This document shows, in pieces, positions 4,581-22,240 of a stretch of DNA of 34,412 nucleotides. The stretch's first letter is position 1; each line of letters starts with the position of its first letter. The translations under genes and the position numbers were made by a program. The DNA lies in assembly GCA_014384545.1 (NCBI GenBank), contig JACNFQ010000050.1, positions 1 to 34,412 on the forward strand, written 5' to 3'. The notes beneath the pieces are model-generated. The model was given only the letters and a program-made list of their open reading frames with translations, ran no database searches and had not been told where the DNA came from. Source of the DNA: a bacterium (GTDB lineage: Bacteria; UBP7; UBA6624).

Positions 4581-7500
4581 ATGAATGCTCCTCGGCGCTT
4601 TCTAACAGCGGCCAGTCTCTTTGATGGTCATGACGCTGCCATCAATCTCATTCGTCGCCTCATTCAAGATGCCGGTGGAGAAGTCGTTCATATGGGGCAC
4701 GACCGCTCGGTGGAGGAGATTGTGATTGCTGCACGGCAAGAGGACCCCCACGCCATCGCCCTCTCGTCCTACCAAGGCGGGCATATCGCTTACTTCACCT
4801 ACTTACTAAAACGGCTCAAGGAAGAGGGGCTGGGGCATATTAGGGTATTTGGGGGGGGTGGGGGTACGATCCTGCCCGAGGAGGCACGCGAACTTGAACG
4901 GCGTGGTGTTGCCCGGATATTTCGACCCGAGGACGGCACCGACAAAGGACTTGAAGGCATTATTTCTGAAGTCTTTGACCTTTGCGATGTGGAACCCTCA
5001 TCACTCAAGTCCAACAAAGGTGAAGGCGCTTTGGCGAGGGCCCTTACACGGATTGAGACGGGCAATCTTGAAGAAGGCGAAGCACCAAGTAAGGGCGCAT
5101 TGGTGGTGGGGTTTACAGGAACGGGTGGTGCGGGAAAATCATCTCTTATTGACGAACTCGTTCTTCGCCTGCGGCGGCAAGAACCAAATAGACAGATTGC
5201 GATACTAGCAGCCGACCCCACAAGAGAACGGACAGGGGGGGCGCTCTTGGGAGACCGAATCCGAATGAATGCGATCTACGACGGTGGTGTCTTTATGCGA
5301 AGCCTCGCTGCCCGACGGGAGCGCCCCCTTATTGAGATTGTAGCATCGGCGGTAGAGAGAACGAAAGCCGCGGGATACGACTTGGTGATGGTTGAAACCC
5401 CTGGCATTGGGCAAGCAGACAACCCGCTTGGCGACCTTTGCGACCTCTCGCTATATGTCATGACTAGTGATTATGGTGCTCCCTCCCAACTAGAAAAAAT
5501 AGAGATGTTAGATAGAGCAGACTTAGTCGTCTTGAACAAGTTTGACCATCGCGCTGGCGAGGACGCTCTTAGAGAAGTGCGCAGACAAGTCAGGCGTCTC
5601 CGATCCAAGGGAGAGGGCACCCTAGAAGAGCAACCCGTCTACCCCACAATTGCTAGCCAATATGCTGACAAGGGTGTGGATGCGTTGGCTACCGAGATAG
5701 AGAGACTGCTTTCGGGGGGGGATGGTGAGAGAACCCACCCTGTTGTTTCTGCCAGACAGCACCTAATACCATCCGATAGAGAGAGGTATCTTGCTGAGAT
5801 TGCACAGGTGGTGCGCCACCGTAGAAAGCGCGTATCTTCGCTATCAGGAAGAGTCCGCCTTGCAGAGGCATTGGCGACTCTCCTTATTGATGACGGAACG
5901 CCTCCACCATCTGGATTCGTCCCCTTCCCCTCTCCTCAAGGGACACTCCAAGAGAGATACAACGATGCGTTATCGGGGATGGGGGAGAGCGCCTTGGTCT
6001 CTTTGCGGGCGTATGACGAGACCGCAAAACGGTATGGAGGCGATACGGCGACCTATTCGGTGCGGGGAAATGAGATCAGCGTCCCCGCATCCACAGAGTC
6101 GCTCTCTGGGCTTCGAATTCCCAAAGTTGCACTCCCCCGCTTTTCCTCGTGGAGCGACCGCTTGGAGTGGATTGCCCAAGAGAATGTGCCTGGGGCATTC
6201 CCCTACACCCAGGGGGTCTACCCTTTCCGCCGTACAGGGGAAGCTCCCACACGGATGTTCGCTGGGGAAGGACCTCCAGAGAGGACGAACGCTCGTTTCC
6301 ATCTCCTTGCCGAGGGGCAACCCGCCACTCGCCTCTCCACGGCGTTCGACTCGCCCACCCTTTATGGCCACAACCCCGAACCCCGTCCCGATGTCTTGGG
6401 CAAGGTGGGGGAGAGTGGCGTCTCCATCGCCACCTTGGATGATATGAAACGCCTCTACGCGGGGTTTGACCTTTGCGCACCCACCACAAGTGTCTCTATG
6501 ACGATTAATGGCCCCGCCCCGATGCTCTTGGCGATGTTCCTGAACACCGCCATCGATGACAAACGGGGGCGGTTTGAGGACGAGAAGGGGAGAGAAGCGA
6601 CCCCTGAGGAGGCTCTCGCCCTTAGGAAGAAAGCTCTTCAGCGTGTGCGCGGCACTGTTCAGGCGGATATCCTCAAGGAAGACCAAGCACAGAACACCTG
6701 CATCTTCGGGACGCCCTTTGCCTTGCGGATGATGGGGGATATCCAATCGTGGTTTATTCAAGAGGGAGTAAGGAACTTTTACAGTGTCTCTATCAGCGGA
6801 TACCATATCGCCGAGGCTGGTGCCAACCCTATCTCTCAGTTGGCTTTTACTCTTGCCAACGGATTTACTTATGTGGAACATTACCTGTCGCGGGGGATGG
6901 AGATTGACGACTTTGCCCGCAACCTCTCCTTCTTTTTCTCTTCAGGCATGGATCCCGAATACCAAGTTCTGGGGCGGGTCGCACGACGCATCTGGGCGGT
7001 CGCTCTTAGGGACAGATATGGTGCGGGGGAACGGGCACAAAAACTAAAGTACCATATCCAGACAAGCGGGCGAAGCCTCCACGCCCAAGAGATTCAGTTC
7101 AACGACATCCGGACCACCCTTCAAGCACTGATGGCGTATTTTGATCGGTGCGACAGCCTCCATACCAACGCCTACGACGAGGCGATTACCACCCCCACCC
7201 CTGAAAGCGTCCGGCGCGCCCTTGCAATCCAACAGATTATCCAGCGGGAGTTCGGCACCGCCCAATGCGAGAACCCCCTCCAAGGCGGTTTCCTTGTGGA
7301 GGAGCTGACAGACCTTGTGGAAGAAGCGGTTCTGACCGAGTTTGAGAGACTCAGCCGCAGAGGAGGGGTCTTGGGTGCGATGGAGTTGGGCTACCAACGA
7401 GGGAAGATCCAAGAAGAGAGTCTCCATTACGAGCGACTAAAACATAGCGGGGAACTCCCCCTTATTGGCGTGAATACTTTTCTTGGAGACGACCCTCAGA

Positions 7501-7745
7501 TAGAAACACCCAAGAATGTCACCCGAGCCACAGAGGAAGAGAAAGATCTCTGCGTCGCCAGATGCATAGCCTTTGAGGGCGACCACGCCAAAGAGGCACC
7601 AGAAGCTTTGTCCCGTCTTCAGTATGCCGCCTTGGAGGGAAAGAACCTCTTTGAAGTGCTGATGGAGACGGTGCGTGTGGCAAGCCTAGGGCAAATCACC
7701 AAGGCACTTTACGGCGCTGGGGGTCGCTACCGCCGAAGCCTCTAG
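4581..7745 (+). CDS. icmF: Fused isobutyryl-CoA mutase (B12 domain - MeaB-like GTPase - mutase)
   Basis: The 1054-residue protein has the full IcmF architecture. Residues 1-140 are a B12-binding domain with FDGHDAA (H17 predicted cobalt ligand). The G domain, about 175-400, has P-loop GTGGAGKSS (K186), DPTRERTGGALLGDR, VETPGIGQ and LNKFDH. The C-terminal mutase barrel starts near 530 with FPYTQGVYPF and TRMFAGEG. IcmF interconverts isobutyryl- and n-butyryl-CoA with adenosylcobalamin, GTP hydrolysis supporting cofactor loading. Residues aligning with the specificity pair of acyl-CoA mutases are F560 (TRMF) and Q704 (QAQNT). This is the F/Q pair of isobutyryl-CoA mutases rather than Y/R of methylmalonyl-CoA mutase; the alignment was made by eye. 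The stop shares CTAG with the convergent gene. Confidence 0.93.
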   Translation: MNAPRRFLTAASLFDGHDAAINLIRRLIQDAGGEVVHMGHDRSVEEIVIAARQEDPHAIALSSYQGGHIAYFTYLLKRLKEEGLGHIRVFGGGGGTILPEEARELERRGVARIFRPEDGTDKGLEGIISEVFDLCDVEPSSLKSNKGEGALARALTRIETGNLEEGEAPSKGALVVGFTGTGGAGKSSLIDELVLRLRRQEPNRQIAILAADPTRERTGGALLGDRIRMNAIYDGGVFMRSLAARRERPLIEIVASAVERTKAAGYDLVMVETPGIGQADNPLGDLCDLSLYVMTSDYGAPSQLEKIEMLDRADLVVLNKFDHRAGEDALREVRRQVRRLRSKGEGTLEEQPVYPTIASQYADKGVDALATEIERLLSGGDGERTHPVVSARQHLIPSDRERYLAEIAQVVRHRRKRVSSLSGRVRLAEALATLLIDDGTPPPSGFVPFPSPQGTLQERYNDALSGMGESALVSLRAYDETAKRYGGDTATYSVRGNEISVPASTESLSGLRIPKVALPRFSSWSDRLEWIAQENVPGAFPYTQGVYPFRRTGEAPTRMFAGEGPPERTNARFHLLAEGQPATRLSTAFDSPTLYGHNPEPRPDVLGKVGESGVSIATLDDMKRLYAGFDLCAPTTSVSMTINGPAPMLLAMFLNTAIDDKRGRFEDEKGREATPEEALALRKKALQRVRGTVQADILKEDQAQNTCIFGTPFALRMMGDIQSWFIQEGVRNFYSVSISGYHIAEAGANPISQLAFTLANGFTYVEHYLSRGMEIDDFARNLSFFFSSGMDPEYQVLGRVARRIWAVALRDRYGAGERAQKLKYHIQTSGRSLHAQEIQFNDIRTTLQALMAYFDRCDSLHTNAYDEAITTPTPESVRRALAIQQIIQREFGTAQCENPLQGGFLVEELTDLVEEAVLTEFERLSRRGGVLGAMELGYQRGKIQEESLHYERLKHSGELPLIGVNTFLGDDPQIETPKNVTRATEEEKDLCVARCIAFEGDHAKEAPEALSRLQYAALEGKNLFEVLMETVRVASLGQITKALYGAGGRYRRSL

Positions 7746-8545
7746 TCGAGGGCTGGGGAGGGGGCGGTCTCCCCAGGACCGAGCCCGACGCGCTCTCGGG
7801 CGAAGTCAAGAGCCTCCTGGAAAAGGCTCCGGGCCTCCGCTGTCCACTCAGCCGTTTCTGGCGTGGGCTGGGTGAAGGCGATGACATCGCTCCACCCCTC
7901 AATCGTTTCGGGGAGACGACCGGTGCGGTCGTAGGCCCACAAGAGAATCCCGCTTGTCCACCACTCCATATTGCGCTTTTCCTTGGCGGGATTTCGGGCG
8001 AAAGAAGTGTCAAGAACCCACCACCTCTCAGCCCATCCCTCGGTGCGCCCCTTCCCGCAGAAGAGCGCCCCCACCACCCTAGCCCCCTCCTCGACCGACT
8101 CCAGCCAGACCATCTTGACGCCCCCGTAAGGCATTTCCTTGTGGTGGAAGCCCTGAAGGTTGTCCTTGGAAGGGGTTGTCTCGGAAGGGAGCAAGACCCA
8201 TTCGGAGGCCTCCTCTCGGGGCAGGAAGGGCACCCAAGGGTTCTCCACTAGGTCGGACGCTTGTGGCAGAGACCCGCCAGCCCATCCCAAGGTGCCAAGG
8301 GAGAGGTACCACAGGCCCGGATGACAGTTGGCGTAGTCGCCCTGCGGGTGCCCCCATCTCTCGGGGAAATAGCGGGCCACGCCCGCTAGGATGTTCGGCT
8401 CTCCCGAATCGCTCTGGACCTGAGGAGCCACCTTCCCGGCAGTTGGGACCTCTCCTTCAGTCTGTGCAGTCAGACACCCCGCCAGCCCGAACAAGCCTAG
8501 GACCAACGCGCCTTGAGCCACCCGCCAATCGCTCTCTCTATCCAT
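7742..8545 (-). CDS. Predicted lipoprotein of unknown function
   Basis: The chosen ATG at 8545 has a GGAGG site 8 bases upstream; a GTG at 8554 would lie on top of that site and is less likely. The ~267-residue product begins with a charged stretch, a hydrophobic segment and a lipobox ending LAGC, so it is probably lipid-anchored. The mature part is rich in Trp, Glu and Pro, with paired WW motifs (RWWVLD, EWWTSG), and has no family I recognise. It lies 18 bases after the Cys-rich gene at 8564-9097 and is probably in the same leftward transcript. GC content is visibly higher than in icmF's neighbours. The stop overlaps the icmF stop, leaving no room for a terminator. Confidence 0.7.
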   Translation of the reverse strand: MDRESDWRVAQGALVLGLFGLAGCLTAQTEGEVPTAGKVAPQVQSDSGEPNILAGVARYFPERWGHPQGDYANCHPGLWYLSLGTLGWAGGSLPQASDLVENPWVPFLPREEASEWVLLPSETTPSKDNLQGFHHKEMPYGGVKMVWLESVEEGARVVGALFCGKGRTEGWAERWWVLDTSFARNPAKEKRNMEWWTSGILLWAYDRTGRLPETIEGWSDVIAFTQPTPETAEWTAEARSLFQEALDFARERVGLGPGETAPSPALD

Positions 8546-8563
8546 CGCCTTCACCTCCCCGCA

Positions 8564-9097
8564 TCAAGTTCCGCATACCGTGCAGTGGAAGAGGAACCCA
8601 GGACCCCCTGTCTGCCCCCCCGCCAACGCCTGTTTCGCTTCGATGAAACAGGGGCAACCCTCCCCGACTGAGATATCCACGACCTGAAAGTCGCTGGGAA
8701 AGAGGCACGAAGCTTCAGGCAGTGAATCGCAGCAGGAGACGAAACACCAAGCCGCCGGATTGCAATTCGCTCTCGAGGGGTCATTCATCACGATCATGGA
8801 ATACCCATTCCTTTCAATGACGAGGTTGCAGGGGATGTTCTGAGGCGGCATATCCTCGAGATCCGCCCAGAACCCCGTATCGTTCAGGCAGTCATACCAG
8901 AGGCTGATAAAACCTGGACCTGACCCCTTGGTGAGCGTGATCTGGCAACACCCTCCACATTCCTCAAAGCCGAGAAGCCCCACAGCCGAATCCAGGCAAG
9001 TGCGGGAAGGAGTCCCCGCAGAGTGGGTAGCAGGCTGGGTGGCGTCCACAGCCCCGACTGTCCCTAGGATGAGCGCGAGGGCGAGAACCATACTCAT
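8564..9097 (-). CDS. Secreted cysteine-rich protein of unknown function
   Basis: The 177-residue product starts with a short signal peptide (MSMVLALALILGTVGAVDA) and contains 15 cysteines, including ECGGCC, FVSCCDS, GCPCF and HCTVC. This implies an extracytoplasmic, disulfide-bonded fold. No known domain is recognised. It is the first gene of a leftward pair with the lipoprotein at 7742-8545. A consensus TTGACA -35 and a TAGCAT -10 lie directly upstream, placing the transcription start at or beside the ATG; no Shine-Dalgarno is present. The next in-frame ATG, two codons in, is an alternative start. Confidence 0.65.
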   Translation of the reverse strand: MSMVLALALILGTVGAVDATQPATHSAGTPSRTCLDSAVGLLGFEECGGCCQITLTKGSGPGFISLWYDCLNDTGFWADLEDMPPQNIPCNLVIERNGYSMIVMNDPSRANCNPAAWCFVSCCDSLPEASCLFPSDFQVVDISVGEGCPCFIEAKQALAGGQTGGPGFLFHCTVCGT

Positions 9098-9103
9098 ATA
9101 TAC

Positions 9104-9132
9104 ATGCTACATTATGTTTTGATAGTTGTCAA
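9104..9132 (-). promoter_or_regulatory. Predicted leaderless promoter of the Cys-rich gene
   Basis: Read on the minus strand, a perfect TTGACA (9132-9127) is followed after 17 bases by TAGCAT (9109-9104). Six bases later comes the ATG (9097). Normal spacing predicts +1 at about the A of the start codon. This is the best -35/-10 pair I found in the window. Confidence 0.6.
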
Positions 9133-9175
9133 GACTGGACGCAAGTGGCGGCGGGTGTTCCGTCGCCTCCCCAAA

Positions 9176-9219
9176 TCCGTTAGGTCGGGGTTTGTGGCTC
9201 TCCGAGCCACCATGTCGGG
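9176..9219 (+). repeat. Direct repeat copy 1 with GTGGCTC/GAGCCAC hairpin
   Basis: This 44-base unit matches 9365-9408 at 41 of 44 positions. It contains a perfect 7-bp stem (9194-9200 with 9204-9210) around a TCC loop, resembling a REP-like or MITE-like unit. Confidence 0.8.
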
Positions 9220-9237
9220 TGGCTCCGGCACAGAGCC

Positions 9238-9251
9238 GGACGCTAGCGTCC
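9238..9251. repeat. Perfect 14-base palindrome GGACGCTAGCGTCC
   Basis: The sequence equals its own reverse complement and follows directly on the first direct-repeat unit. It could be part of a compound hairpin or a protein-binding site; nothing indicates which. Confidence 0.7.
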
Positions 9252-9291
9252 TTCTCTGGCATCCGTCCCTCATGTCCACCCCTCGGGATGT

Positions 9292-9313
9292 GGCAAGGCG
9301 TGGAAGCCTTGCC
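9292..9313. repeat. Hairpin, 8-bp perfect stem with 6-base loop
   Basis: GGCAAGGC (9292-9299) pairs with GCCTTGCC (9306-9313). No T-tract follows on either strand, so this is not a typical intrinsic terminator; it looks like part of the repeat cluster. Confidence 0.6.
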
Positions 9314-9364
9314 CTATAGTGGAAGGGTCGCCCTAACGGGAAGAGGATAGCATCCCCACAAGAT

Positions 9365-9408
9365 TCCGCTAGGTCGGGGATTGTGGCTCTCCGAGCCACC
9401 ATATCGGG
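9365..9408 (+). repeat. Direct repeat copy 2 with GTGGCTC/GAGCCAC hairpin
   Basis: This is the second copy of the 44-base unit, three mismatches from 9176-9219. The mismatches spare the 7-bp stem (9383-9389 with 9393-9399), suggesting that the hairpin is the conserved element. Confidence 0.8.
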
Positions 9409-9597
9409 CGCTCCGGCGCTAGACCAGCCCACCTTTTTTCCGCGCAGGGCTGGAGTTGCCTCCACCGCTTTAGCTGACGTTGATTCCCCGCACGGATTGC
9501 TGTCCTCCTCCAGCTATGGATGCCCGTTCCCATACTGCTCAACGGAGTACGAAGACACACCCTCTTCTAGAGGCAAACCAAGCAACGGTTTCTATGG

Positions 9598-9603
9598 TAT
9601 ACT
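9598..9603 (+). promoter_or_regulatory. Weak candidate -10 box (TATACT) for the gene at 9672
   Basis: TATACT lies about 69 bases before the ATG, giving a leader of roughly 60 bases that ends in a GGAGG ribosome site. No matching -35 is visible, so the call is tentative. Confidence 0.25.
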
Positions 9604-9671
9604 CTGCACTCGGACACAGATGGGAACCCCCGATGCTCCCCAACCGCGACCGGACAATTGGGAGGTAACAA

Positions 9672-10523
9672 ATGGTGATGAAACGCTCGGTCTTTTTCGT
9701 AGGGATCTTGCTCGCCGCAGGGTGGGGGTCCCTCTCCATCCTTACAGATACACACCTGAGAGCCGAACACCTGCCCGCGTGTATCAGTGGGTTCTGCGAC
9801 GTTGTCGTGCCTGCGCCAGAAGTGAATCCTGCTTCACGGGTCCAAGCGGATGGGACGATTCCTCGTGGTCAGGCGAACATCATCGCCATGGCGGGAGCCC
9901 TGGAAATGGCCATCAAGGATGGATATCCATTCCCTCAGGATGCAACGTGGCTCCTCGAGCATGACTACCTACCCCACGCAATCTGCCGCCCGGGAGGTTT
10001 GCCTGAGGATTCAGCCAGTCTTGATGGTGCCAAGGGTGGCGATTTCACTCTTGACTCCCAGTCTGGACAGTTCTCGCTCTCCATCGTTGGCCTACCCGGC
10101 AGGATGAAGGTGGAAGCGGATCCAGGCAAGATCCTGACAGGACTCCTAGAGACACCGAGCCTCCACAGGGATCTCTTGGCAACAGACAGCCTGGCTCGCA
10201 GGATGTTCGTGCAGGCACGGTGGATCACCAACGCCGGTAGGCTTGGTGCCACTTGGCCCGACAGAGTCGCCGCAAAGGGTGGGAACCTCAACTTTCCCGA
10301 CGCGTCCTTGGCAGCACTCGCCCCGTGGCTTCCCTGCACCGGGCTGGTGAATCTGGTCACGGGGGAACCGCTGGCCGAGGGCATGGGTCCCGGCGAGGTG
10401 ACGATCGAATCGGTCGCTGGCATCGTGGGCGATAGGCCAGGGAGAGGCTACCGGGTCTCCGTGCACCATCCCTCCGGTGCCGACCTGTCATGGAAGATCA
10501 TGCTCGCCCAGCCGCCGAACTGA
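9672..10523 (+). CDS. Secreted protein of unknown function, pseudopilin-like globular region
   Basis: The ATG at 9672 follows GGAGG (9661-9665) at good spacing; an in-frame ATG two codons later (MKRSVFF) is also possible. Of ~283 residues, the first ~30 form a signal peptide (KRSVFFVGILLAAGWGSL). The segment GALEMAIKDGYPFPQD followed by WLLEHDYLP, near residues 75-100, resembles the 'Y-P ... L ... Y-P' pattern after the helix of type II pseudopilins, but the N-terminal GFTLxE methylation motif is absent. I would not assign a function. Five cysteines (two in ACISGFCD) suggest disulfides. It is followed 25 bases later by a predicted lipoprotein and lies in the GC-rich island. Confidence 0.65.
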   Translation: MVMKRSVFFVGILLAAGWGSLSILTDTHLRAEHLPACISGFCDVVVPAPEVNPASRVQADGTIPRGQANIIAMAGALEMAIKDGYPFPQDATWLLEHDYLPHAICRPGGLPEDSASLDGAKGGDFTLDSQSGQFSLSIVGLPGRMKVEADPGKILTGLLETPSLHRDLLATDSLARRMFVQARWITNAGRLGATWPDRVAAKGGNLNFPDASLAALAPWLPCTGLVNLVTGEPLAEGMGPGEVTIESVAGIVGDRPGRGYRVSVHHPSGADLSWKIMLAQPPN

Positions 10524-10548
10524 GTTCTTGGCGGGTGGACAGGGTGCA

Positions 10549-11187
10549 TTGAGGTCTTGGGTCGCGGTAGCTCTCCTCGTTGCGGGGTGTCTGCGCGTGG
10601 GGTCGGCACCAGAGGGCGACCGACCGGAGCCTCTCCTGGACCACGAAGTGCCTTGGGCATGCGTTTCGCAGGATTTCGCCGAGCACCGTCTTCTCCTATT
10701 GATGGGTAGGGAGTGGGTTTGGGCAGGGCGGCCGGGCAGCCTCGGTGATCTGTTTTCAGGGCTGGGCGCGTTGGCCACAGAAGAAGCGGGAGAAGGAAGT
10801 TGCCTCAAGGAGAGTGGTCAGACGCTCCTCATCAGGTCCATCGGCGATCCGGCCCAGAGCACGCTGTACGAATGGGATCCCCGCGAGATGCCCGAGGAGG
10901 CGGCGTTCCCCTACACACGGGTTGCCAAGAAGGACTGGTCCGCCGTGATGTGGTTCCGTGCGGTTTCGAGGTTGGTCTTTGGGGGTTTGCCCTACGCCGA
11001 CCCGCCGGTCGCAGATTGTTCACCCCCGCCCGTCCCCCACATTGACGGATACCGAATCGCGTCCGACCCAACGGAAGAGGGATGCCTTCTGAGCCTTTGG
11101 CGAGGAGAGGAGCTCATCCATCGCATCGCCCTTGAAGTCACAAAGATACGGAAGGATTTTCTGAGCGTCTGGCCTCCTAGGGATTGA
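10549..11187 (+). CDS. Predicted lipoprotein of unknown function (start uncertain)
   Basis: The frame is open from a GTG at 10477, but that start lies inside the previous gene and would put 24 polar residues before the signal sequence. A TTG at 10549, with AGGG just upstream, gives MRSWVAVALLVAGC, a compact lipoprotein signal with lipobox LVAGC, so it is preferred; a TTG at 10528 is another choice. The ~212-residue product has a proline-rich middle (CSPPPVP) and no family I recognise. It probably shares a transcript with the secreted protein at 9672-10523. GC content is high, as in the rest of the island. Confidence 0.6.
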   Translation: MRSWVAVALLVAGCLRVGSAPEGDRPEPLLDHEVPWACVSQDFAEHRLLLLMGREWVWAGRPGSLGDLFSGLGALATEEAGEGSCLKESGQTLLIRSIGDPAQSTLYEWDPREMPEEAAFPYTRVAKKDWSAVMWFRAVSRLVFGGLPYADPPVADCSPPPVPHIDGYRIASDPTEEGCLLSLWRGEELIHRIALEVTKIRKDFLSVWPPRD

Positions 11188-11410
11188 TCCCGCTCTTCCC
11201 CCCGATCACCGACCAGGGAAGGGGGGGACTGGGTCGCCCAAGACCCCTTTTCTTTGGGGGGCGGCTAGCCTGTCGAGGTTGTTGAGGACCCCGAAACCCT
11301 TCGCCTTTCGTGCCTGCCAGGGGCCTCCAAAGCCTGGGATCTTGCCCTGGTGCGGGGACAGGCGACCGGCCATGAGGGGATCGGGCTAGCCCTGGGTGTT
11401 TCTGCTAGGC
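11188..11410. other. Convergent intergenic gap without clear features
   Basis: These 223 bases separate the ends of two convergent genes. Only weak C-run/G-run pairings are visible (for example CTTCCC near 11217 with GGGAAG near 11240), without a T-tract. It is the only convergent gene pair in the window that does not have overlapping stops. Confidence 0.5.
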
Positions 11411-12118
11411 TCAGGCGACGCAATCCAAATCCGTGGTGGCCGTCAAGGCCGCGGGCGGCTGCGGGCCCACGGGGAGATCCCAAGTGACCGTGGTCCCCTC
11501 AACGGAAGCCGGCGGGTCCGCAACGACCACAGGGCATTCCAGCGTAACGGCCACATCGAGGGAACTGCCGGGTGACGCCATGCCCATCATAGGTTGGGTC
11601 ATCTGCCAGAGTGGGAGAAGAACCTCCGTGGAGAGGGTGACCTCGACTGAGCCATCTTCAAGGACAGTTCTCGTCAGTGCCCCCGGGGTGGGCACAGGGT
11701 AGAAGTAGGTCCCATCCGGGGCGCCCGCCGCGAGAAAACCCACCCACTCCGAGACATACTGGTTCCAGTCCTGCAGGGTGGAGAACCTGAACTGGAAGGA
11801 GAACAGGCAGATGTCCCCAGCCGGATTCGGATTGGCCCAGCCGTCCATCGCGACGTCCACCCCAATCTGGGCAAACCAGGAGGACCCCGCGCCATCAGGA
11901 TCGAATTCGTTGGTATTCGGGGCGCACCCCCAATCGGGGAAGAAGGGCTCCTCCTCGACCCAGGTCACCTCGACGGCCCCGTCCGCCCCCACCTCGATCG
12001 CCACCTGTTGCTTGGGCGACACACCAGCACATCCGGCAAGCGACAGAAGCAGAAGCCCCCCGGAGAGGACGACAAGCCCCCGGCCGCCCATCATCCCTAG
12101 CCCCTGCACTCGCCTCAT
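11411..12118 (-). CDS. Predicted lipoprotein, beta-rich, unknown function
   Basis: The ATG at 12118 is chosen because it follows AGGGGGAAGG and overlaps an upstream stop as ATGA. The frame extends 35 codons further, but that stretch lacks secretion features. The ~235-residue product has a signal ending in LLLLSLAGC (lipobox). The mature part alternates beta-type segments such as VAIEVGADGAVEVTW and VLEDGSVEVTLS, and ends with a GTTVTWDLP segment. It recalls small surface lipoproteins with an 'x-DGS-VEVT' pattern, but the family is not certain. Its first strand resembles IDLALESGGAVLTW in the short gene just upstream, so the two may be paralogues. Confidence 0.65.
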   Translation of the reverse strand: MRRVQGLGMMGGRGLVVLSGGLLLLSLAGCAGVSPKQQVAIEVGADGAVEVTWVEEEPFFPDWGCAPNTNEFDPDGAGSSWFAQIGVDVAMDGWANPNPAGDICLFSFQFRFSTLQDWNQYVSEWVGFLAAGAPDGTYFYPVPTPGALTRTVLEDGSVEVTLSTEVLLPLWQMTQPMMGMASPGSSLDVAVTLECPVVVADPPASVEGTTVTWDLPVGPQPPAALTATTDLDCVA

Positions 12119-12350
12119 CCGCCTTCCCCCTGGGTGGTGACCTCTCCGCAGGCCATCCAGACGGATTCCCCCGATCCAACAACCGATGAGGGGCACGCTT
12201 GGATGTCGCAGATGTTCTCGCAACCCTCAATCTTTCCCTTTCGGGGGTGTTCCTCGCTGTTCACTCTTGCGCACCGGGCAAAACCGGCCGTACCGAACTT
12301 GCATCTGCAAGCCCACGGGGCACGTGGATCCCCTTGGCAACGGTCCTGAC
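12115..12350 (-). pseudogene. Probable frame-shifted 3' half of the upstream small lipoprotein gene
   Basis: In the minus-strand frame ending at 12115, an open stretch encodes a Cys-rich tail (PWACRCKFG ... EGCENICDIQACPSS ... VWMACGEVTTQ). It has no good start of its own, but its TGA overlaps the downstream ATG as ATGA. That overlap is the normal coupling seen between real genes in this window. A -1 shift near the C-run at 12330-12333 would join it to the lipoprotein-like frame starting at 12494, giving one ~126-residue protein. It could be a mutation, a sequencing error or, less likely, programmed frameshifting. Confidence 0.45.
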
Positions 12351-12494
12351 CGGCTCCCCCCATGTCAGGACGGCCCCGCCACTCTCCAAGGCCAGATCGA
12401 TCGTGTAGGTGGCGTTGTCGCACCCCCATCCCATAAGGGCAAGGCCCAGCACCAAGATGACAGTGCCACTCCCGTTCTTCATTCCGGTGTTCAC
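12261..12494 (-). CDS. Small lipoprotein-like protein, possibly truncated by a frameshift
   Basis: The start is a GTG at 12494 with a strong AGGAGG site 6 bases upstream; the longer open frame has no such signal. The 77-residue product starts VNTGMKNGSGTVILVLGLALMGWGC, a secretion signal with a weak lipobox, followed by YTIDLALESGG and VLTWGEPV. The latter resembles the first strand of the lipoprotein downstream. The last ~30 residues look less ordered, and the frame stops 142 bases before the next gene while another frame stays open. The natural product may therefore be longer. Confidence 0.5.
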   Translation of the reverse strand: MNTGMKNGSGTVILVLGLALMGWGCDNATYTIDLALESGGAVLTWGEPVRTVAKGIHVPRGLADASSVRPVLPGAQE

Positions 12495-12696
12495 TTTTCT
12501 CCTCCTGCGAGAGCAACAGCCCTGAAAGTCGGCGAGCAGGACCAAACGGTCATCGGTTGCCCTGAAAGCCCCCGGCCGCAATAGTCTACACCGCTGGTCC
12601 AAGTCTTTGCGCTCAACTTGCGGATTCATGGAATCTCCCATGGTGGATAAGGCTGGGAATTGGCGACGGATTCTAGGTGTCGCCACGCGTCGGGGC

Positions 12697-12770
12697 GTGG
12701 ACATGAGGGACGGAGAGCTACAACCGCCGCCTGATAACGGATTGGGGGTGGCGACGGAACACCCGCCGCC
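12697..12770 (-). repeat. Right arm of imperfect inverted repeat (partner 9147-9279)
   Basis: 12738-12770 is the reverse complement of 9147-9179 with two mismatches, and 12697-12713 is the exact reverse complement of 9263-9279. Together the arms bracket the four island genes between 9672 and 12494. Confidence 0.8.
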
Positions 12771-12826
12771 ATTAGGGGGAGGCTATAAGGAGTAATGGGA
12801 TTGGGAAAACATGGTGGGGTTGGGCA

Positions 12827-12832
12827 TACGAT
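12827..12832 (+). promoter_or_regulatory. Candidate -10 box (TACGAT) for leaderless epimerase gene
   Basis: TACGAT is followed by six bases (GGGGGT) and the ATG at 12839. The G-run is too close to the ATG to act as a normal ribosome site. The arrangement matches that at 4569 and 25744. Confidence 0.3.
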
Positions 12833-12838
12833 GGGGGT

Positions 12839-13861
12839 ATGCCACGCTTAGCGGTCATTGGGGGGTCTGGGCTTCTGGGTTCCCATCTTATCGCTGCCCT
12901 AGAAAGAGAGGGATGGTCAGCTTCGTCAATAGATAGAGTACCCTTCCCCAAGAACGCCCCTAGGCCCCCAGGGTTTTGGGAACTATGTGGTGATGCCCTA
13001 GATACAGCGAAGTTGGCTGAAACCCTCAAGGGGGCTGATGCAGTATGGATAAAAGCTGCAAAACTAGCAGGCGACCGCCATGACGACGATGCTCTTCCCG
13101 CATACAAGCGCATCAATGTGGCACTGCCACAGAAAGTGATGGAGATGGCCGGAAAGATGGGGATTCCTCGTATCTATCTAGACTCATCCGATGCCGTCTT
13201 TTTGGATACTTGGACAGAGGGAAACCACCTTCCTGACAGCCCCCCCTGCCCCAAGGACCACTACGGAAGAACGAAAGCCGAAGCAGAATCTCTCCTAAAG
13301 GAATGGGCTATGGCGAGTGATGACCGCTCTGGGCAGATAGTTAGATATTCGCGTGTGCGTGCCTTTGAAAGTGGCGGTGTTCTAGCGCTTTGGTGTGCCC
13401 AAGCGTCCCTGGGGTTGCCCCTTCGCCTTTTTGGAGATGGGAGCCGGGCGGGGTGTGCCATTCATCTGGACGATTGTGTGCGGGGCAGTGTGGCTGCCCT
13501 CTCGTTGGCACCTCGCTTTGCCACCTACAATCTAACCCTTCCACCCATAACTCTCTCTGACCTCTCTTCAATCGTTGCCCAGTTGCTGGGTGAAACAGGG
13601 GTTTCTTACGATGACGACCCAAGCGATCCCACCGACCCACAGATCCACGCTATGGACCCCGGCGATAGTTGGGAGCGTTTGGGGATAGTGCCCCGAGTTT
13701 CGTATGACCAAATGGTTGAAGAGACCGCAGCGTTCGTCAAGGAGCGACTAGAGGGGGAGATTCCCCCTTGGGTTCGCCCCTTCAAGAATCTTCCTGGTAT
13801 TCAAGCGCTCATTAGAATATCCCTGATTGCTGCGTCCCGGAAACGTGGCATTCCACTTTAG
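12839..13861 (+). CDS. NAD(P)-dependent epimerase/dehydratase-like protein (extended SDR)
   Basis: The 340-residue protein has an N-terminal Rossmann fold with VIGGSGLLGSHL (residues 6-17), a variant of the GxxGxxG dinucleotide loop. An active-site-like YGRTK (YxxxK) lies near residue 140, preceded by DSSDAVF where the catalytic Ser is expected. The region LFGDGSRAGCAIHLDD corresponds to the 'G-x-G-x-x-x-x-x-x-V-x-D' segment of extended SDR sugar epimerases and 3-beta-HSD-like proteins. The substrate cannot be named. It is the first gene of a rightward unit, and its stop overlaps the ribosome site of the peroxiredoxin gene, so the two are cotranscribed. Confidence 0.8.
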   Translation: MPRLAVIGGSGLLGSHLIAALEREGWSASSIDRVPFPKNAPRPPGFWELCGDALDTAKLAETLKGADAVWIKAAKLAGDRHDDDALPAYKRINVALPQKVMEMAGKMGIPRIYLDSSDAVFLDTWTEGNHLPDSPPCPKDHYGRTKAEAESLLKEWAMASDDRSGQIVRYSRVRAFESGGVLALWCAQASLGLPLRLFGDGSRAGCAIHLDDCVRGSVAALSLAPRFATYNLTLPPITLSDLSSIVAQLLGETGVSYDDDPSDPTDPQIHAMDPGDSWERLGIVPRVSYDQMVEETAAFVKERLEGEIPPWVRPFKNLPGIQALIRISLIAASRKRGIPL

Positions 13862-14400: not shown

Positions 14401-14736
14401 ATGAAGAAGGGGTTCTGTATCTCAAGTAAGATCTCTTTTGAAGAGGGAGATAGTGCCGCGATGCCCCCAAGAGATCCTAACCAAGGTACACCTTTCCAGA
14501 ACGGTGTTTGGGATGCGCTAGCATCAATCCCCTCTGGAGAAACCCGCACTTATGGTGAGATTGCCCAAGAGATAGACCGTCCTATGGCGTTTCGGGCAGT
14601 CGCAGCTGCTTGTGGTGCCAACCCCTTCCCCGGGCTTGTCCCCTGCCACCGCGTCGTTGCTAAAGATGGCTGGGGCGGATTTTCGGCACCGGGCGGACTT
14701 ACCCTTAAGATTCGCATGGTCAACGCTGAAAAATGA
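14401..14736 (+). CDS. Methylated-DNA-protein cysteine methyltransferase (short, MGMT/Ogt C-terminal domain)
   Basis: The product contains the complete DNA-binding/active-site domain of O6-alkylguanine-DNA alkyltransferases. This runs from GTPFQNGVWDAL, through TYGEIAQ and the AVAAACGANPFPGLVPCHRVV active site (C82), to GGFSAPGG. It transfers the alkyl group from O6-alkylguanine to its own cysteine. At 111 residues it lacks the N-terminal RNase-H-like domain of longer members. An in-frame ATG at 14461, with GAGGGAG about 11 bases upstream, would give a 91-residue minimal domain, and the first 20 residues look non-domain-like. The stop overlaps the next start (ATGA). Confidence 0.88.
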   Translation: MKKGFCISSKISFEEGDSAAMPPRDPNQGTPFQNGVWDALASIPSGETRTYGEIAQEIDRPMAFRAVAAACGANPFPGLVPCHRVVAKDGWGGFSAPGGLTLKIRMVNAEK

Positions 14737-17568: not shown

Positions 17569-18175
17569 ACTACTTCAAGCCCAATCCCAAGCGACGATTC
17601 GTCGCATCCAAGACGCTGCACGCACCCTCTTTCTCCAGAGGAGCTATGCCGATGTATCGATGTCAGACATTGCACAATCAGCGGCACTAACGAAGGGCGC
17701 TCTATATCACCACTTTCGGAGCAAAGAATCACTCTATTTGGAGATGATGCATGCCGATTTGGATAGCAAACGAACACTCTTTCTTAGTGCGATTGAAGAA
17801 CCGGGGTCTACAAGGGATAGATTGGCTAGGCTCACACTCGCTTATTTTTCGTTGCCTGCCTCTCAGCGCGACCTTATCCGCTTGGTTAGGCGCGACAACA
17901 ATGTCTTTGAAGAACCCCTGCGAAGCGCGTTGGTCGCCGCCTACCAAAGGGCACTTCCTGAACCGGTAGAAACGGTCTTGAGAGAAGGCATCCACCGTGG
18001 CGAAATTGCCCCTACCGACCCCCGCCTCCTCTCGTGGCAATATGTCGCCTTGGTTGAAACGGCTCTTTCTCCCCACGCTGACCGCGTTCTTCCCACAGCC
18101 AAAGAGAAGGTAGCCTACACACTTTCCCTCTTCCTTGAGGGCTCAATAGGAGATTCGAATGCAAAAGATTCTTGA
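17564..18175 (+). CDS. TetR/AcrR-family transcriptional regulator
   Basis: The 203-residue protein has a classic N-terminal helix-turn-helix (about residues 15-60: ARTLFLQRSYADVSMSDIAQ, then SAALTKGALYHHF and RSKESLY). The divergent C-terminal all-helical domain binds a ligand. Family members are mostly repressors released by acyl-CoA or aromatic ligands. Here the likely operator covers the gene's own start. The 3' end overlaps the bcrC-like gene by 17 bases, so the regulator is the first gene of the operon it probably controls. The ligand may be the CoA-thioester substrate of the reductase, which is inference. Confidence 0.92.
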   Translation: MSLLQAQSQATIRRIQDAARTLFLQRSYADVSMSDIAQSAALTKGALYHHFRSKESLYLEMMHADLDSKRTLFLSAIEEPGSTRDRLARLTLAYFSLPASQRDLIRLVRRDNNVFEEPLRSALVAAYQRALPEPVETVLREGIHRGEIAPTDPRLLSWQYVALVETALSPHADRVLPTAKEKVAYTLSLFLEGSIGDSNAKDS

Positions 18176-19319
18176 TTGGGAAGGGCTCTCCCTAAATGAA
18201 GTCCTAACTTTGGCACGGGATGTCCTTGAAGACCCGGACCTTCCTACTGTCGCCAAATGGCGAGAAGGAGGGGGAAAGGTTTTGGGTCATTTCCAGGTCT
18301 ATTTCCCCGAAGAGATTGCTCATGCTGCGGGGATGCTTCCTTTCAAGATGAAGGGATTCCCTGTCGCTCCCGACCATGCAGATTCTCGCTTTGGCTCCTT
18401 CCTCTGTTCCATCATCAAAACCTCTCTAGAGGTCGCTCTCTCGGGTACCTTGAAACTCGACATGTTCGTCACGCACCCCATCTGTGATGCTGCCCGAAAC
18501 CTAGGGGCAATTTTTGGTCGGAATTTCACCCACCCCTCCCCCATTCTTTACCTCCCTCAAAACCCCAACTCGTCCCACTCCGTTGTTTGGCTGACCGAAG
18601 AGTATGAACGGCTTCAAAAGATGGTGGAAGAGGTTGCCGGGAAGAAGATCTCTCAACAAGACCTAGCACACTCCATCGCTCTCTTCAACACCAACCGAGC
18701 CCTGATCCGTAAACTCTATGCATTAAAAGACGCAACCCCGTGGAAGATTGCAGCAGAGGATGCCTATGCATTGGTCGCCTTGGCTGGTTTTGTTCCCCGA
18801 GAAGAACATAACGCCCTCCTTGAGTGGGTTCTCCCCCAACTCCAAAGTAGAGACTCTCGCGAAGAGGACCGTGTTCGTATCGTCTTTGAAGGCGCATTTT
18901 GCGAGCAACCCCCTCTAGATCTTGTCCGCCTTCTGGGTCGAACGACTTACGTCGTGGATGATGATTTCCTTATCGGTCTTAGATACCTCTTGGAGGATGT
19001 ACATCCAGGAGACGACCCCCTAGAAGCACTTGCCGAAGCTTACATCAATGCCTCTTCGTACAGCCCCGTCCAGCACGACAACCGCAAGCACAAGGAGAAA
19101 CTCCTCTTGGGGAGGATTCGTAATGCCCGCGCTGGTGCTGCCGTGGTGGGCGCTGCCAAGATGTGCGAGCCGGGTCTAGAAGAGTTGGTCAACTACACCC
19201 ACGCTCTAGATGATGCTGGTATCCCCCATTTTGTGACCGAGTTTGAGGAGAACATGACGAGTTTCTCTACCCTTGAACTCCAGTTAGAGACTTTTGTAGA
19301 GAATATGCTTTTTGCCTAG
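18159..19319 (+). CDS. bcrC: Benzoyl-CoA reductase class I subunit C-like (2-hydroxyacyl-CoA dehydratase family)
   Basis: The 386-residue protein matches BcrC/BzdN length and belongs to the HgdB-type iron-sulfur superfamily. Candidate cluster ligands are visible in FLCSIIKTSLE, THPICDAARN, EGAFCEQPP and AAKMCEPG, in the places where the family carries them. With subunit B it would form the substrate-reducing half of an ATP-dependent enzyme such as benzoyl-CoA reductase, which dearomatises benzoyl-CoA with ferredoxin electrons. AGGAG lies 6 bases before the ATG. The C-B-A-D order downstream matches Thauera bcrCBAD. A 2-hydroxyacyl-CoA dehydratase or another arene reductase cannot be excluded. 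Confidence 0.8.
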   Translation: MQKILDWEGLSLNEVLTLARDVLEDPDLPTVAKWREGGGKVLGHFQVYFPEEIAHAAGMLPFKMKGFPVAPDHADSRFGSFLCSIIKTSLEVALSGTLKLDMFVTHPICDAARNLGAIFGRNFTHPSPILYLPQNPNSSHSVVWLTEEYERLQKMVEEVAGKKISQQDLAHSIALFNTNRALIRKLYALKDATPWKIAAEDAYALVALAGFVPREEHNALLEWVLPQLQSRDSREEDRVRIVFEGAFCEQPPLDLVRLLGRTTYVVDDDFLIGLRYLLEDVHPGDDPLEALAEAYINASSYSPVQHDNRKHKEKLLLGRIRNARAGAAVVGAAKMCEPGLEELVNYTHALDDAGIPHFVTEFEENMTSFSTLELQLETFVENMLFA

Positions 19320-19335
19320 GAGGAACGTAAGACTT

Positions 19336-20616
19336 ATGGATTCAATTATTGGAAGAGGAAACAAAGAAGGAGCCCAAATGTTCAGGGACTGGTTTGATGG
19401 TCTGACCCAAACCGCCAATGCGGGCAATAAGGCTGCGTATGTCTTTGTGATGGGTAGCTTTAATGAGATACTGCTCTCCTTTGACCTTCCAGTCGTCTTC
19501 CCTGAGATTCACTCCCTCCAAACAGCCGTACGACGCTCGGCACTTCCCCTCCTGCAAGAAGCAGAGGACCATGGCTATTCCCCTGATATCTGTGGGTATG
19601 TAAAGGCTGATATAGGTGTTCAACTTCGTGGTGGCGAACACCCTATGGGGAAGATTCCCAAGCCCGGAATTGCCGTTTATACGAATGCTTGCAACACTTA
19701 TATCAAGTGGGCTGAAGCCTGGGAGCGAATGCACGGATGCCCCATCTTTACTCTTGATGTCCCGGGGTCCCGAGAGGCTGACGGAATCAGTTGGCAAGGT
19801 GATTCCTCTTTTGAGAGCGACCGCAAATATGTAGAAGTCCAAATCCGCGAACTCATCACCCTCTGTGAAGAGATTACAGGGAAGAAGTTCGATATTGACC
19901 GCCTCCGAGAAACGATGAATCATGCCAATGCCATCAATAGAGGATGGGCCCGTATCCTGGAACTCAATAAGAGTCGCCCCTCCCTCTTCAATGCCCTAAC
20001 CGATGGCACCATCTACTTGGGCGTTGCGAATGTGATGCGTGGAACCAAAGAGGCAGCTGATTACTTTGACAGATTGGTAGAAGAGATGGAAACGAAAGCA
20101 GCACAGGGCATTGGAACCCTTGCCGAGGAAGAATGGCGTCTCGCTTTTGTCGGTGTTCCCTGTTACCCCATCTTTCGCCGATTCAACGAGATCTTTTCCG
20201 AATGGAAGGGTACATTCGTGACAAGCACCTACCTTTGGTTCGCTTCGGGTGGATCCAACATAGGGTTCCAATACGAGATGAAGGACCCCATAAAAAGTCT
20301 ATCTGAGGGCGTTCTCATCAGTGTAAGAGATTCAATGGACTCTATGTTTCACCAAGATCGCATTATCCCAAAGATGGTTGAGGAGTTTGATTTGGATGGC
20401 GTCGTTTATCACCCCATCAAGAGCTGCAGAACAGTAAGCACGGGTTTAGCGGATAGCAGACGTGTGCTCACCGACCAAGGTATTTCTAGCCTCTTTATAG
20501 AGAGCGACATGATGGACAAGCGCGTCGTGTCAGAGGCTCAGATGAAAAATAGGATTGATGCCTTTTTTGAAGGTTTGGCATCAAAGCGAAAACAGCTCTT
20601 GGTGGCAGGAGGTTAG
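19336..20616 (+). CDS. bcrB: Benzoyl-CoA reductase class I subunit B-like
   Basis: The ATG at 19336 follows AGGAGG (19318-19323) at 12 bases; a TTG at 19312 would lie upstream of that site and is disfavoured. The ~426-residue protein fits BcrB/BzdO length. Conserved cysteine segments include [29 protein letters not shown] and [13 protein letters not shown]. The last is characteristic of 2-hydroxyacyl-CoA dehydratase and benzoyl-CoA reductase large subunits. It would hold a [4Fe-4S] cluster and the acyl-CoA site together with subunit C. It ends 2 bases before the bcrA-like start. Confidence 0.8.
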
Positions 20617-20618
20617 TC

Positions 20619-21431
20619 ATGGCTTATTCAGGTGGCGTTGATGTGGGAAGCACCCAAACGAAAGCCGTAATTCTTGACGAGGATGGTGCGATTATCGGTC
20701 GATCCCTAACGGATACAGGGGCGAATGTGATGGCTGCCGCCAAAGGTGCCTTTAGAGACGCTTTAGAGGACGCTGGTCGCATGGAACAAGAAGTGGAATG
20801 GGTCATTGGTACAGGGTATGGAAGGTATCGCGTGACTTTTGGCAACGACCAAGTCACCGAAATCTCTTGCCACGGACGAGGGGCTGTTCATCTCCATCCA
20901 GACACCCGCACCGTCTTGGATATGGGGGGTCAAGATACGAAGGCGATCAAAGTTGCTCCCAGTGGAGAGATTCTGGACTTCTGCATGAACGACAAGTGTG
21001 CTGCGGGAACGGGGCGTTTCTTAGGCGCTGCCTCTTCGGCACTTGGGATTCCCCTTCCCGACTTAGGACCCACCGCCCTCAAAGCCCGCAAAAGCGTCCG
21101 CATCAGCACGACGTGCACCGTCTTTGCCGAATCGGAAGTTCTTGCTTGGTTGGGCAAGGGGAAAAAAGTGGAAGATATCCTCTGGGGCGTTCACCAATCA
21201 ATCGCCACCCGTTCTATGGGACTCTTGAGACGCGTTGGGGTCGTTGAAGAAGTGACTTTCACTGGGGGAGTCTCCAAGAACGAGGGGATGGTAAAAGCGC
21301 TTGAAGATGCCACAGGCGTTTCTCTCAACATCAGCCCCGAAGGACACTATATGGGCGCCGTTGGGGCAGCACTTTTTGCCCTTGATCATATCTTAGCGAG
21401 CCGCATTCCCAAGGCTGTGGAGGCATCATGA
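20619..21431 (+). CDS. bcrA: ATPase/activator subunit A of benzoyl-CoA reductase type (BadF/BadG family)
   Basis: This 270-residue protein is an acetate-kinase/actin-fold ATPase of the BcrAD/BadFG family. It shows a phosphate-1 loop [10 protein letters not shown] (7-15), LDMGGQDTK as phosphate-2, and the two cysteines of the subunit-bridging [4Fe-4S] cluster, C127 ([11 protein letters not shown]) and C166 ([11 protein letters not shown]). TGGVSKN serves as the adenosine motif. ATP hydrolysis here drives electron transfer from ferredoxin to the BC subunits. AGGAGG lies 6 bases before the ATG. A second, different ATPase follows, indicating a heterodimer as in class I benzoyl-CoA reductases rather than the homodimeric activator of dehydratases. 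Confidence 0.88.
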
Positions 21432-22240
21432 CCATTACGGCAGGTATCGATGTAGGTAGCACCTACGCAAAGGCTCTAATCTTGGACGACAGAATGAAGA
21501 TCTTGGGACAATCGATGCTCCCCACAGGATTCCTATTGGGCAAAGTCGCAAGAGATAGTTTCGAACTTGCCCTCAAAGAAGCTGGACTCGAACAGGGGGA
21601 TATCTCATACACCATCTCAACAGGGTATGGACGCCACCAAGTTGATTTCAAGGATATGGCAGTGACCGACCTAACTGCAGGGGCTAGGGGTGCCATTCAC
21701 CTCTATCCCAATACACGCACCATTCTGGATGTGGGTGGACAGACAATGAAAGCGCTCAAAGTCGACGAAAAGAAGATGATTCAAGGGTTCCGCCTGAACG
21801 ACAAGTGTGCAGCCGGCACAGGGGCATTCTTAGAGAAAACAGCACGGTATATGGGGTACGAAACAGAAGAGATTGCCCCCCTGCTCCTTACCTCTAAGAG
21901 TCCGGTTTCGATTTCGGGTGTCTGTGCCGTCTTTGCCGAATCAGAAGTCATCAACCACCTTTCTCAAGGTGCTCCCCCTTCGGAAATCATGCAAGGTTCT
22001 GTTGAATCCCTTACACAGCGTGCCCTCCAACTCATGAAACGCGTCAAGGGTGGTCCAGGCTATTCTCTTATTGGAGGGATTATGCGCTTTTCTACGATGC
22101 CCAAAGCCGTCAAAGACGCTTTAGAGGGCGAAGTGAATATCCCCGAGGGTGAAATGACCCAATACATCGCTGCTCTGGGCAGCGCACTCCTCGGTCACCT
22201 CCGATTAGAGAGACTCGCCTCAGAAGCCGCCACGGTATGA
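21428..22240 (+). CDS. bcrD: ATPase/activator subunit D of benzoyl-CoA reductase type
   Basis: This 270-residue paralogue of the preceding ATPase has [20 protein letters not shown]127 in [11 protein letters not shown] and C166 in [12 protein letters not shown]. Both cluster cysteines are therefore present, and a bridging [4Fe-4S] cluster with subunit A is feasible. The adenosine-binding region is altered to GGIMRF from GGVSKN. In phosphate-2, T-M replaces the usual D-T, suggesting that the two nucleotide sites are not equivalent. It overlaps the upstream gene (ATGA) and the next gene (ATGA). Confidence 0.86.

What the first reader, a model, noticed from the sequence alone, without database searches (positions are those of the whole stretch)
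9147..12770. Inverted repeats bracketing four island genes
9147-9179 and 12738-12770 match in inverse orientation at 31/33 bases, with a second exact 17-base block (9263-9279 / 12697-12713). The arms enclose 9672-12494. This could mark an insertion, an invertible segment, or two copies of a dispersed repeat in opposite orientation.
Basis: seen in the sequence. Interest (0 to 1): 0.55.

Follow-up and report, generated by a model that had tools for sequence, protein, structure and literature searches.

The report
Two copies of a dispersed hairpin repeat
The inverted match is real, but it is two copies, in opposite orientation, of a short hairpin-rich repeat scattered between genes all over this uncultured bacterium's genome; they do not mark the ends of the inserted gene block they happen to lie in.

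Summary
In detail: 9146-9182 / 12735-12771 pair at 35/37, and 9263-9279 / 12697-12713 match exactly. They are two copies of one dispersed repeat. A covariance model finds 15 full-length cores, about 5 truncated, internally expanded or split ones, and about ten fragments in the window's 1.39 Mb, 79%-complete assembly. It finds none in 59 other genomes, including two of the same family. The core (~117 nt) folds into a closed multi-hairpin structure with paired two-sided changes. The right copy lacks 61 nt that the left copy has; the junction is at a repeated TCCG. A 21-nt outer hairpin is exact only in these two copies, so they are each other's closest kin. The bracket is not a unit. In both same-family genomes the mutase gene (window 4581-7745) and the epimerase gene (12839-13861) lie about 10 bp apart. 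The window lineage has 5.1 kb (7746-12838; 62% GC against 52-55% in the flanks) with six exported-protein or lipoprotein genes between. The left copy sits inside that island, the right copy at its right edge; no repeat marks the left edge, no target duplication is visible, no serine recombinase is found. Best reading: a lineage-specific MITE/BOX/REP-like palindromic repeat, mobiliser unknown. Low interest.

The parts
9146..9175 (+). Outer hairpin GGCGGCGGGTGTTCCGTCGCC (9147-9167) and linker, upstream of the left core copy
   Evidence: Exact only here and at 12750-12770 in the whole assembly
9176..9293 (+). Left copy: full-length core of the repeat (TCCGTTAGG ... hairpin GTGGCTC/GAGCCAC ... long stem ... 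GTCCCTCATG)
   Evidence: Covariance model R1 134 bits, E 2e-38; alignment A1
9292..9313 (+). Companion hairpin GGCAAGGC-GTGGAA-GCCTTGCC
   Evidence: Hairpin scan; same loop GTGGAA with other stems at other loci
9365..9417 (+). Second, 3'-truncated core copy in tandem
   Evidence: 44 bits
12659..12771 (-). Right copy: outer hairpin, 5' part of core, then a 61-nt gap at a TCCG junction, then core 3' end and a degenerate companion hairpin
   Evidence: junction GTTGTAGCTCTCCG|TCCCTCATG
7746..12838 (.). Lineage-specific island between mutase and epimerase (absent from two same-family genomes)
   Evidence: GC 0.618 against 0.549 / 0.521 in the flanks
7742..8554 (-). Island gene 1, predicted lipoprotein (LAGC lipobox seen in sequence), no family
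8564..9097 (-). Island gene 2, predicted exported Cys-rich protein, no family
9672..10523 (+). Island gene 3, predicted exported protein, no family
10477..11187 (+). Island gene 4, predicted lipoprotein (VAGC), no family; true start probably downstream of 10523
11411..12109 (-). Island gene 5, predicted lipoprotein (LAGC); paralogues on contigs C61 and C4
12261..12482 (-). Island gene 6, predicted small lipoprotein (MGWGC), no PHROG
   Evidence: lipobox read from the sequence

Best explanation
The two arms are copies of a lineage-specific, non-autonomous, palindromic interspersed repeat (MITE/BOX/REP-like) made of hairpin modules whose units begin with (TCC)GTTAGG and end with CCTAAC(GG). It spread through intergenic DNA, probably by a trans-acting enzyme or by replication-linked copying of folded single strands; that step is inferred and no enzyme was found. 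The window pair are close kin: one probably arose from the other by local copying in inverted orientation, and the right copy then lost 61 nt between two TCCG repeats. Both happen to lie in or at the edge of a separate 5.1-kb lineage-specific island of exported-protein genes. They are neither its ends nor invertase sites.
For: Shown: dispersed copies. None in 40 or 59 other genomes, including two of the same family, and no exact 26-mer in the GTDB contig collection. Structure: 91.4% of cells paired against 41-51% when slid, 15 two-sided cells against 5.2 in shuffles, 0/500 shuffles as high. Companion hairpins keep the loop GTGGAA while the stem changes (GGCAAGGC, GGCGACCC, GTCGGGGC). Pair kinship: 21-mer exact only here. 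Right-copy deletion junction and junctions at the same TCCG in other copies. Island boundaries: mutase and epimerase adjacent in G001 and G002 with surrounding genes colinear.
Against: No Y1 transposase PF01797 was found in the assembly, so the mobiliser is unknown; other transposase families were not searched and 21% of the genome is missing. No target-site duplication could be shown. The stem covariation rests largely on two subfamilies that differ by one concerted change, so it is few events. Two-sided changes in the pair count can also come from shared descent.
Confidence: 0.85

Rival explanations
1. The arms bound a mobile insertion (composite element) that carried the four genes between them.
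For: The right arm ends 68 bp from the epimerase start, close to the right synteny boundary. The bracketed DNA has foreign-looking GC.
Against: The inserted DNA extends 1.4 kb further left, with two more genes of the same composition and type. No repeat at 7746. No direct duplication outside the arms. Enclosed genes match no transposase or PHROG family. About 20 other copies stand alone in ordinary intergenic gaps.
Confidence: 0.05
2. The segment is an invertible switch flipped between the inverted repeats.
For: Inverted arms with 37 nt at 95% identity and genes in both orientations between them.
Against: No adjacent recombinase; no PF00239 match in the assembly, whereas the control genomes ring in 10 of 14. 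The same repeat occurs elsewhere singly, in tandem or in direct orientation (C77, two copies on the same strand). The right copy is internally deleted. Tyrosine recombinases were not searched.
Confidence: 0.03
3. The repeat is a conserved structured RNA or attenuator (cis-regulatory or terminator element) that the host maintains, not a mobile repeat.
For: Closed multi-hairpin fold with two-sided changes. Several copies sit within about 20 bp of a stop codon.
Against: No Rfam match in the window. Counting both sides, facing gene ends split evenly, 16 3' ends and 16 5' ends. Copies occur in tandem, truncated, and with nested extra hairpins (C77, C86, C48). Absent from same-family genomes.
Confidence: 0.05

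Closest known systems
BOX elements of Streptococcus pneumoniae (modular, MITE-like; PMC3049150)
   Same: Intergenic, species-restricted, about 100-200 bp, modular with variable hairpin modules, strong predicted secondary structure
   Different: No sequence relation seen; target duplications and terminal repeats established for BOX but not here; far fewer copies here (~20 cores)
REP / REPIN sequences and BIMEs (PMC3733652, PMC3116915)
   Same: Dispersed extragenic palindromes in one genome, copies in opposite orientation, compensatory stem changes reported for REPINs
   Different: No GTAG tag and no RAYT/Y1 transposase found here; the unit is a longer multi-hairpin
Small dispersed repeats of cyanobacteria (Elhai et al. 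2008, known only through the citation in PMC3116915; the paper is not held)
   Same: Very small mobile repeats (from the title); hairpin folding is from general knowledge
   Different: Not compared in sequence; different organism

Membership tests
MITE / BOX-like interspersed repeat | Many copies dispersed in intergenic DNA of one lineage | tested here: met
   20 core loci at E<1e-9, none in 59 other genomes; contexts
MITE / BOX-like interspersed repeat | Terminal inverted repeats | tested here: inconclusive
   (TCC)GTTAGG ... CCTAAC(GG) ends are seen in many units, but full element ends vary between copies
MITE / BOX-like interspersed repeat | Target-site duplication | tested here: inconclusive
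   None visible at the window arms; no orthologous empty site, because the relatives lack the whole island
MITE / BOX-like interspersed repeat | Autonomous parent transposon in the same genome | not tested
   Only PF01797 and PF00239 were searched, both without a match
REP / REPIN | Short palindrome with GTAG or CGTC tag | tested here: not met
   By reading the consensus of A1: unit ends are GTTAGG / CCTAAC
REP / REPIN | RAYT (Y1 tyrosine transposase) in the genome | tested here: inconclusive
   No PF01797 match; assembly 79% complete
Invertible DNA segment | Site-specific recombinase nearby | tested here: inconclusive
   No recombinase gene in the window's island; no PF00239 match in the assembly; tyrosine recombinases not searched genome-wide
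Invertible DNA segment | Both orientations in the population | not testable with these tools
   No reads available
Composite transposon / bounded insertion | Repeats coincide with both ends of the inserted DNA | tested here: not met
   Insertion is 7746-12838; the left arm is at 9146

The most novel reading that the evidence does not exclude
The repeat is an undescribed class of folded single-strand mobile element that spreads by template-like copying of whole hairpin modules. The recurrent TCCG junction in the first hairpin's loop (7 tandem joints to TCCGTTAGG, plus the window's right copy) would be its cleavage and rejoining site, handled by an enzyme that is not a Y1 transposase.
Probability: 0.08. 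Interest if true: 0.5.

Novelty: new member of a known kind. Interest (0 to 1): 0.18.

Why it matters
It stops the bracket from being read as a mobile unit or a switch, and it places the real lineage-specific insertion at 7746-12838. The repeat itself is one more lineage-restricted palindromic repeat family, here in a poorly sampled bacterial lineage; the concerted stem swaps make it a modest test case for how hairpin repeats spread and change. Such repeats also break assemblies: several contigs of this genome start or end in a copy (C107, C56, C32).

Tried and rejected
RAYT/Y1 transposase as mobiliser: no match. Serine invertase: no match. Known RNA family: none in the window. Repeat in relatives: none by DNA or covariance model. 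Exact 26-mer in GTDB contigs: none. Organism identity: the mutase search returned only 54-58% identical proteobacterial and myxobacterial MAG loci, not conclusive. General link between repeat copies and high-GC islands: rotation test P = 0.03 with the window, 0.18 without it, so not supported beyond the window. Preference for gene 3' ends: 16 against 16. A first hand-written structure was out of register and was replaced. MAFFT placed the deleted right copy wrongly; its alignment was read instead. The island-gene search in the two relatives was empty but had no positive control.

Full report
What was checked. The inverted match is in the sequence as stated: 9146-9182 against 12735-12771 (37 nt, 95%), with a second colinear block containing the exact 17-mer 9263-9279 / 12697-12713. 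The distance between the two blocks differs on the two sides (116 and 57 nt). Reading both copies in the same direction, the right copy runs GTTGTAGCTCTCCG then TCCCTCATGTCC, where the left copy has 61 further nt between its two TCCG sites (9201-9204 and 9262-9265). The right arm is therefore the same element with an internal deletion at a 4-nt repeat.

The repeat is dispersed. A search of the window's own assembly (1.39 Mb, 107 contigs, 79% complete) with 9146-9440 gives 87 matching pieces on more than 20 contigs; the right arm gives the same set. A covariance model of 15 aligned cores (A1, R1) finds 15 full-length cores, five more at E < 1e-9 that are truncated, internally expanded or split by extra hairpin sequence, and about ten weaker fragments. 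Several contigs start or end in a copy (C107, C56, C32), as expected of assembly-breaking repeats. The same searches find nothing in 40 genomes by DNA and 59 by model, including two of the same family, and a 26-nt core word has no exact match in the GTDB contig collection (records near the window's own genome may be left out there).

Anatomy. The core folds as an outer CGGGG/CCCCG stem closing a GTGGCTC/GAGCCAC hairpin and a long stem, CATG..GGG..GC..CAGAG..GGACG with its complements. Given that structure, 91.4% of cells pair, against 41-51% when partners are slid by 1-3 columns; 15 cells have changes on both sides against 5.2 in shuffles (0/500 as high). Most of this comes from one concerted swap, CAGAG/CTCTG to CAAGA/TCTTG, carried by four copies (C70, C77, C62, C32); C4 has the new 5' side only, so its stem is broken. 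Companion hairpins next to the core keep the loop GTGGAA while the stems differ (GGCAAGGC, GGCGACCC, GTCGGGGC). Three copies (C77, C86, C48) carry a further hairpin nested between the two core stems. Seven copies carry a tandem joint in which the first hairpin's TCCG is fused to a new TCCGTTAGG start. These may be one inherited subfamily rather than independent events.

The pair. The outer hairpin GGCGGCGGGTGTTCCGTCGCC is exact at both window sites and nowhere else in the assembly; the next best site has 3 mismatches. The two window copies are therefore each other's nearest kin, which fits local copying in inverted orientation (inference).

The island. In both same-family genomes the mutase fusion gene and the epimerase gene are neighbours about 10 bp apart and on one strand, and the genes on both sides are colinear with the window. 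The window has 5.1 kb between them, 7746-12838, GC 0.618 against 0.549 and 0.521 in the flanks, with six genes. Five start with signal or lipobox-like sequences visible in the translation, and gene 6 reads MKNGSGTVILVLGLALMGWGCDN from an internal start; none of those searched reaches a Pfam, PHROG or NCBIfam cut-off (gene 6 was scanned in Pfam only in longer overlapping frames). One, 11411-12109, has paralogues on C61 (33%) and C4 (28%), and both contigs also carry repeat copies. An insertion in this lineage or a loss in the other genus would look the same; the deviant GC favours insertion. The conserved neighbours on both sides make an assembly chimera unlikely.

Link between repeat and island. 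The left copy is 1.4 kb inside the island and the right copy 68 bp from its right end. No copy lies at the left end, and the bases outside the arms (GACGCAAG and TTAGGGGG) are not a duplication. Over the fetched stretches high-GC genes are not closer to repeats once the window is left out (P = 0.18). So the repeat does not define the island.

Mechanism. Shown: dispersal, lineage restriction, structure, deletions and tandem joints at TCCG. Inferred: spread as a non-autonomous palindromic element. Not found: a mobiliser; Y1 transposases (PF01797) and serine recombinases (PF00239) have no match in this incomplete assembly, and other families were not searched. The closest known kinds are BOX and other MITE-like repeats (PMC3049150) and REP/REPIN sequences (PMC3733652, PMC3116915). 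It works like these, but membership in the REP family is not claimed, since the tag is absent and no RAYT was found.

Verdict. Real, ordinary in kind, new in sequence. The bracket is coincidental; the lineage-specific block is larger and differently bounded.

Noticed in passing
window 7746-12838: 5.1-kb lineage-specific block of six exported or lipoprotein-like orphan genes at high GC, between a mutase fusion gene and an epimerase gene that are adjacent in two same-family genomes.
   Followed up: partly
window 14401-14736: O6-methylguanine-DNA methyltransferase gene (TIGR00589) with no match in the otherwise colinear stretch of the two same-family genomes.
   Followed up: no
L096 (C77) 5251-5430, L098 (C86) 442-630, L099 (C48) 2619-2873: Core copies with a further hairpin nested between the two core stems; the C48 copy carries yet another insert in that hairpin's loop.
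   Followed up: partly
L102 (C75) 8310-8369: Near-perfect ~45-bp palindrome TTAGG...GTGGCTCTCTGAGCCAC...CCTAA, perhaps the elementary unit of the repeat family; the model hits it on both strands.
   Followed up: no
L093 (C4) 2088-2555 and L144 (C61) 6477-7127: Paralogues of island lipoprotein 11411-12109; the C4 one lies about 350 bp from a repeat copy.
   Followed up: partly
window 18159-22240: Cluster of two activase-like and two 2-hydroxyacyl-CoA dehydratase-like genes (naming from reading the translations, not searched).
   Followed up: no
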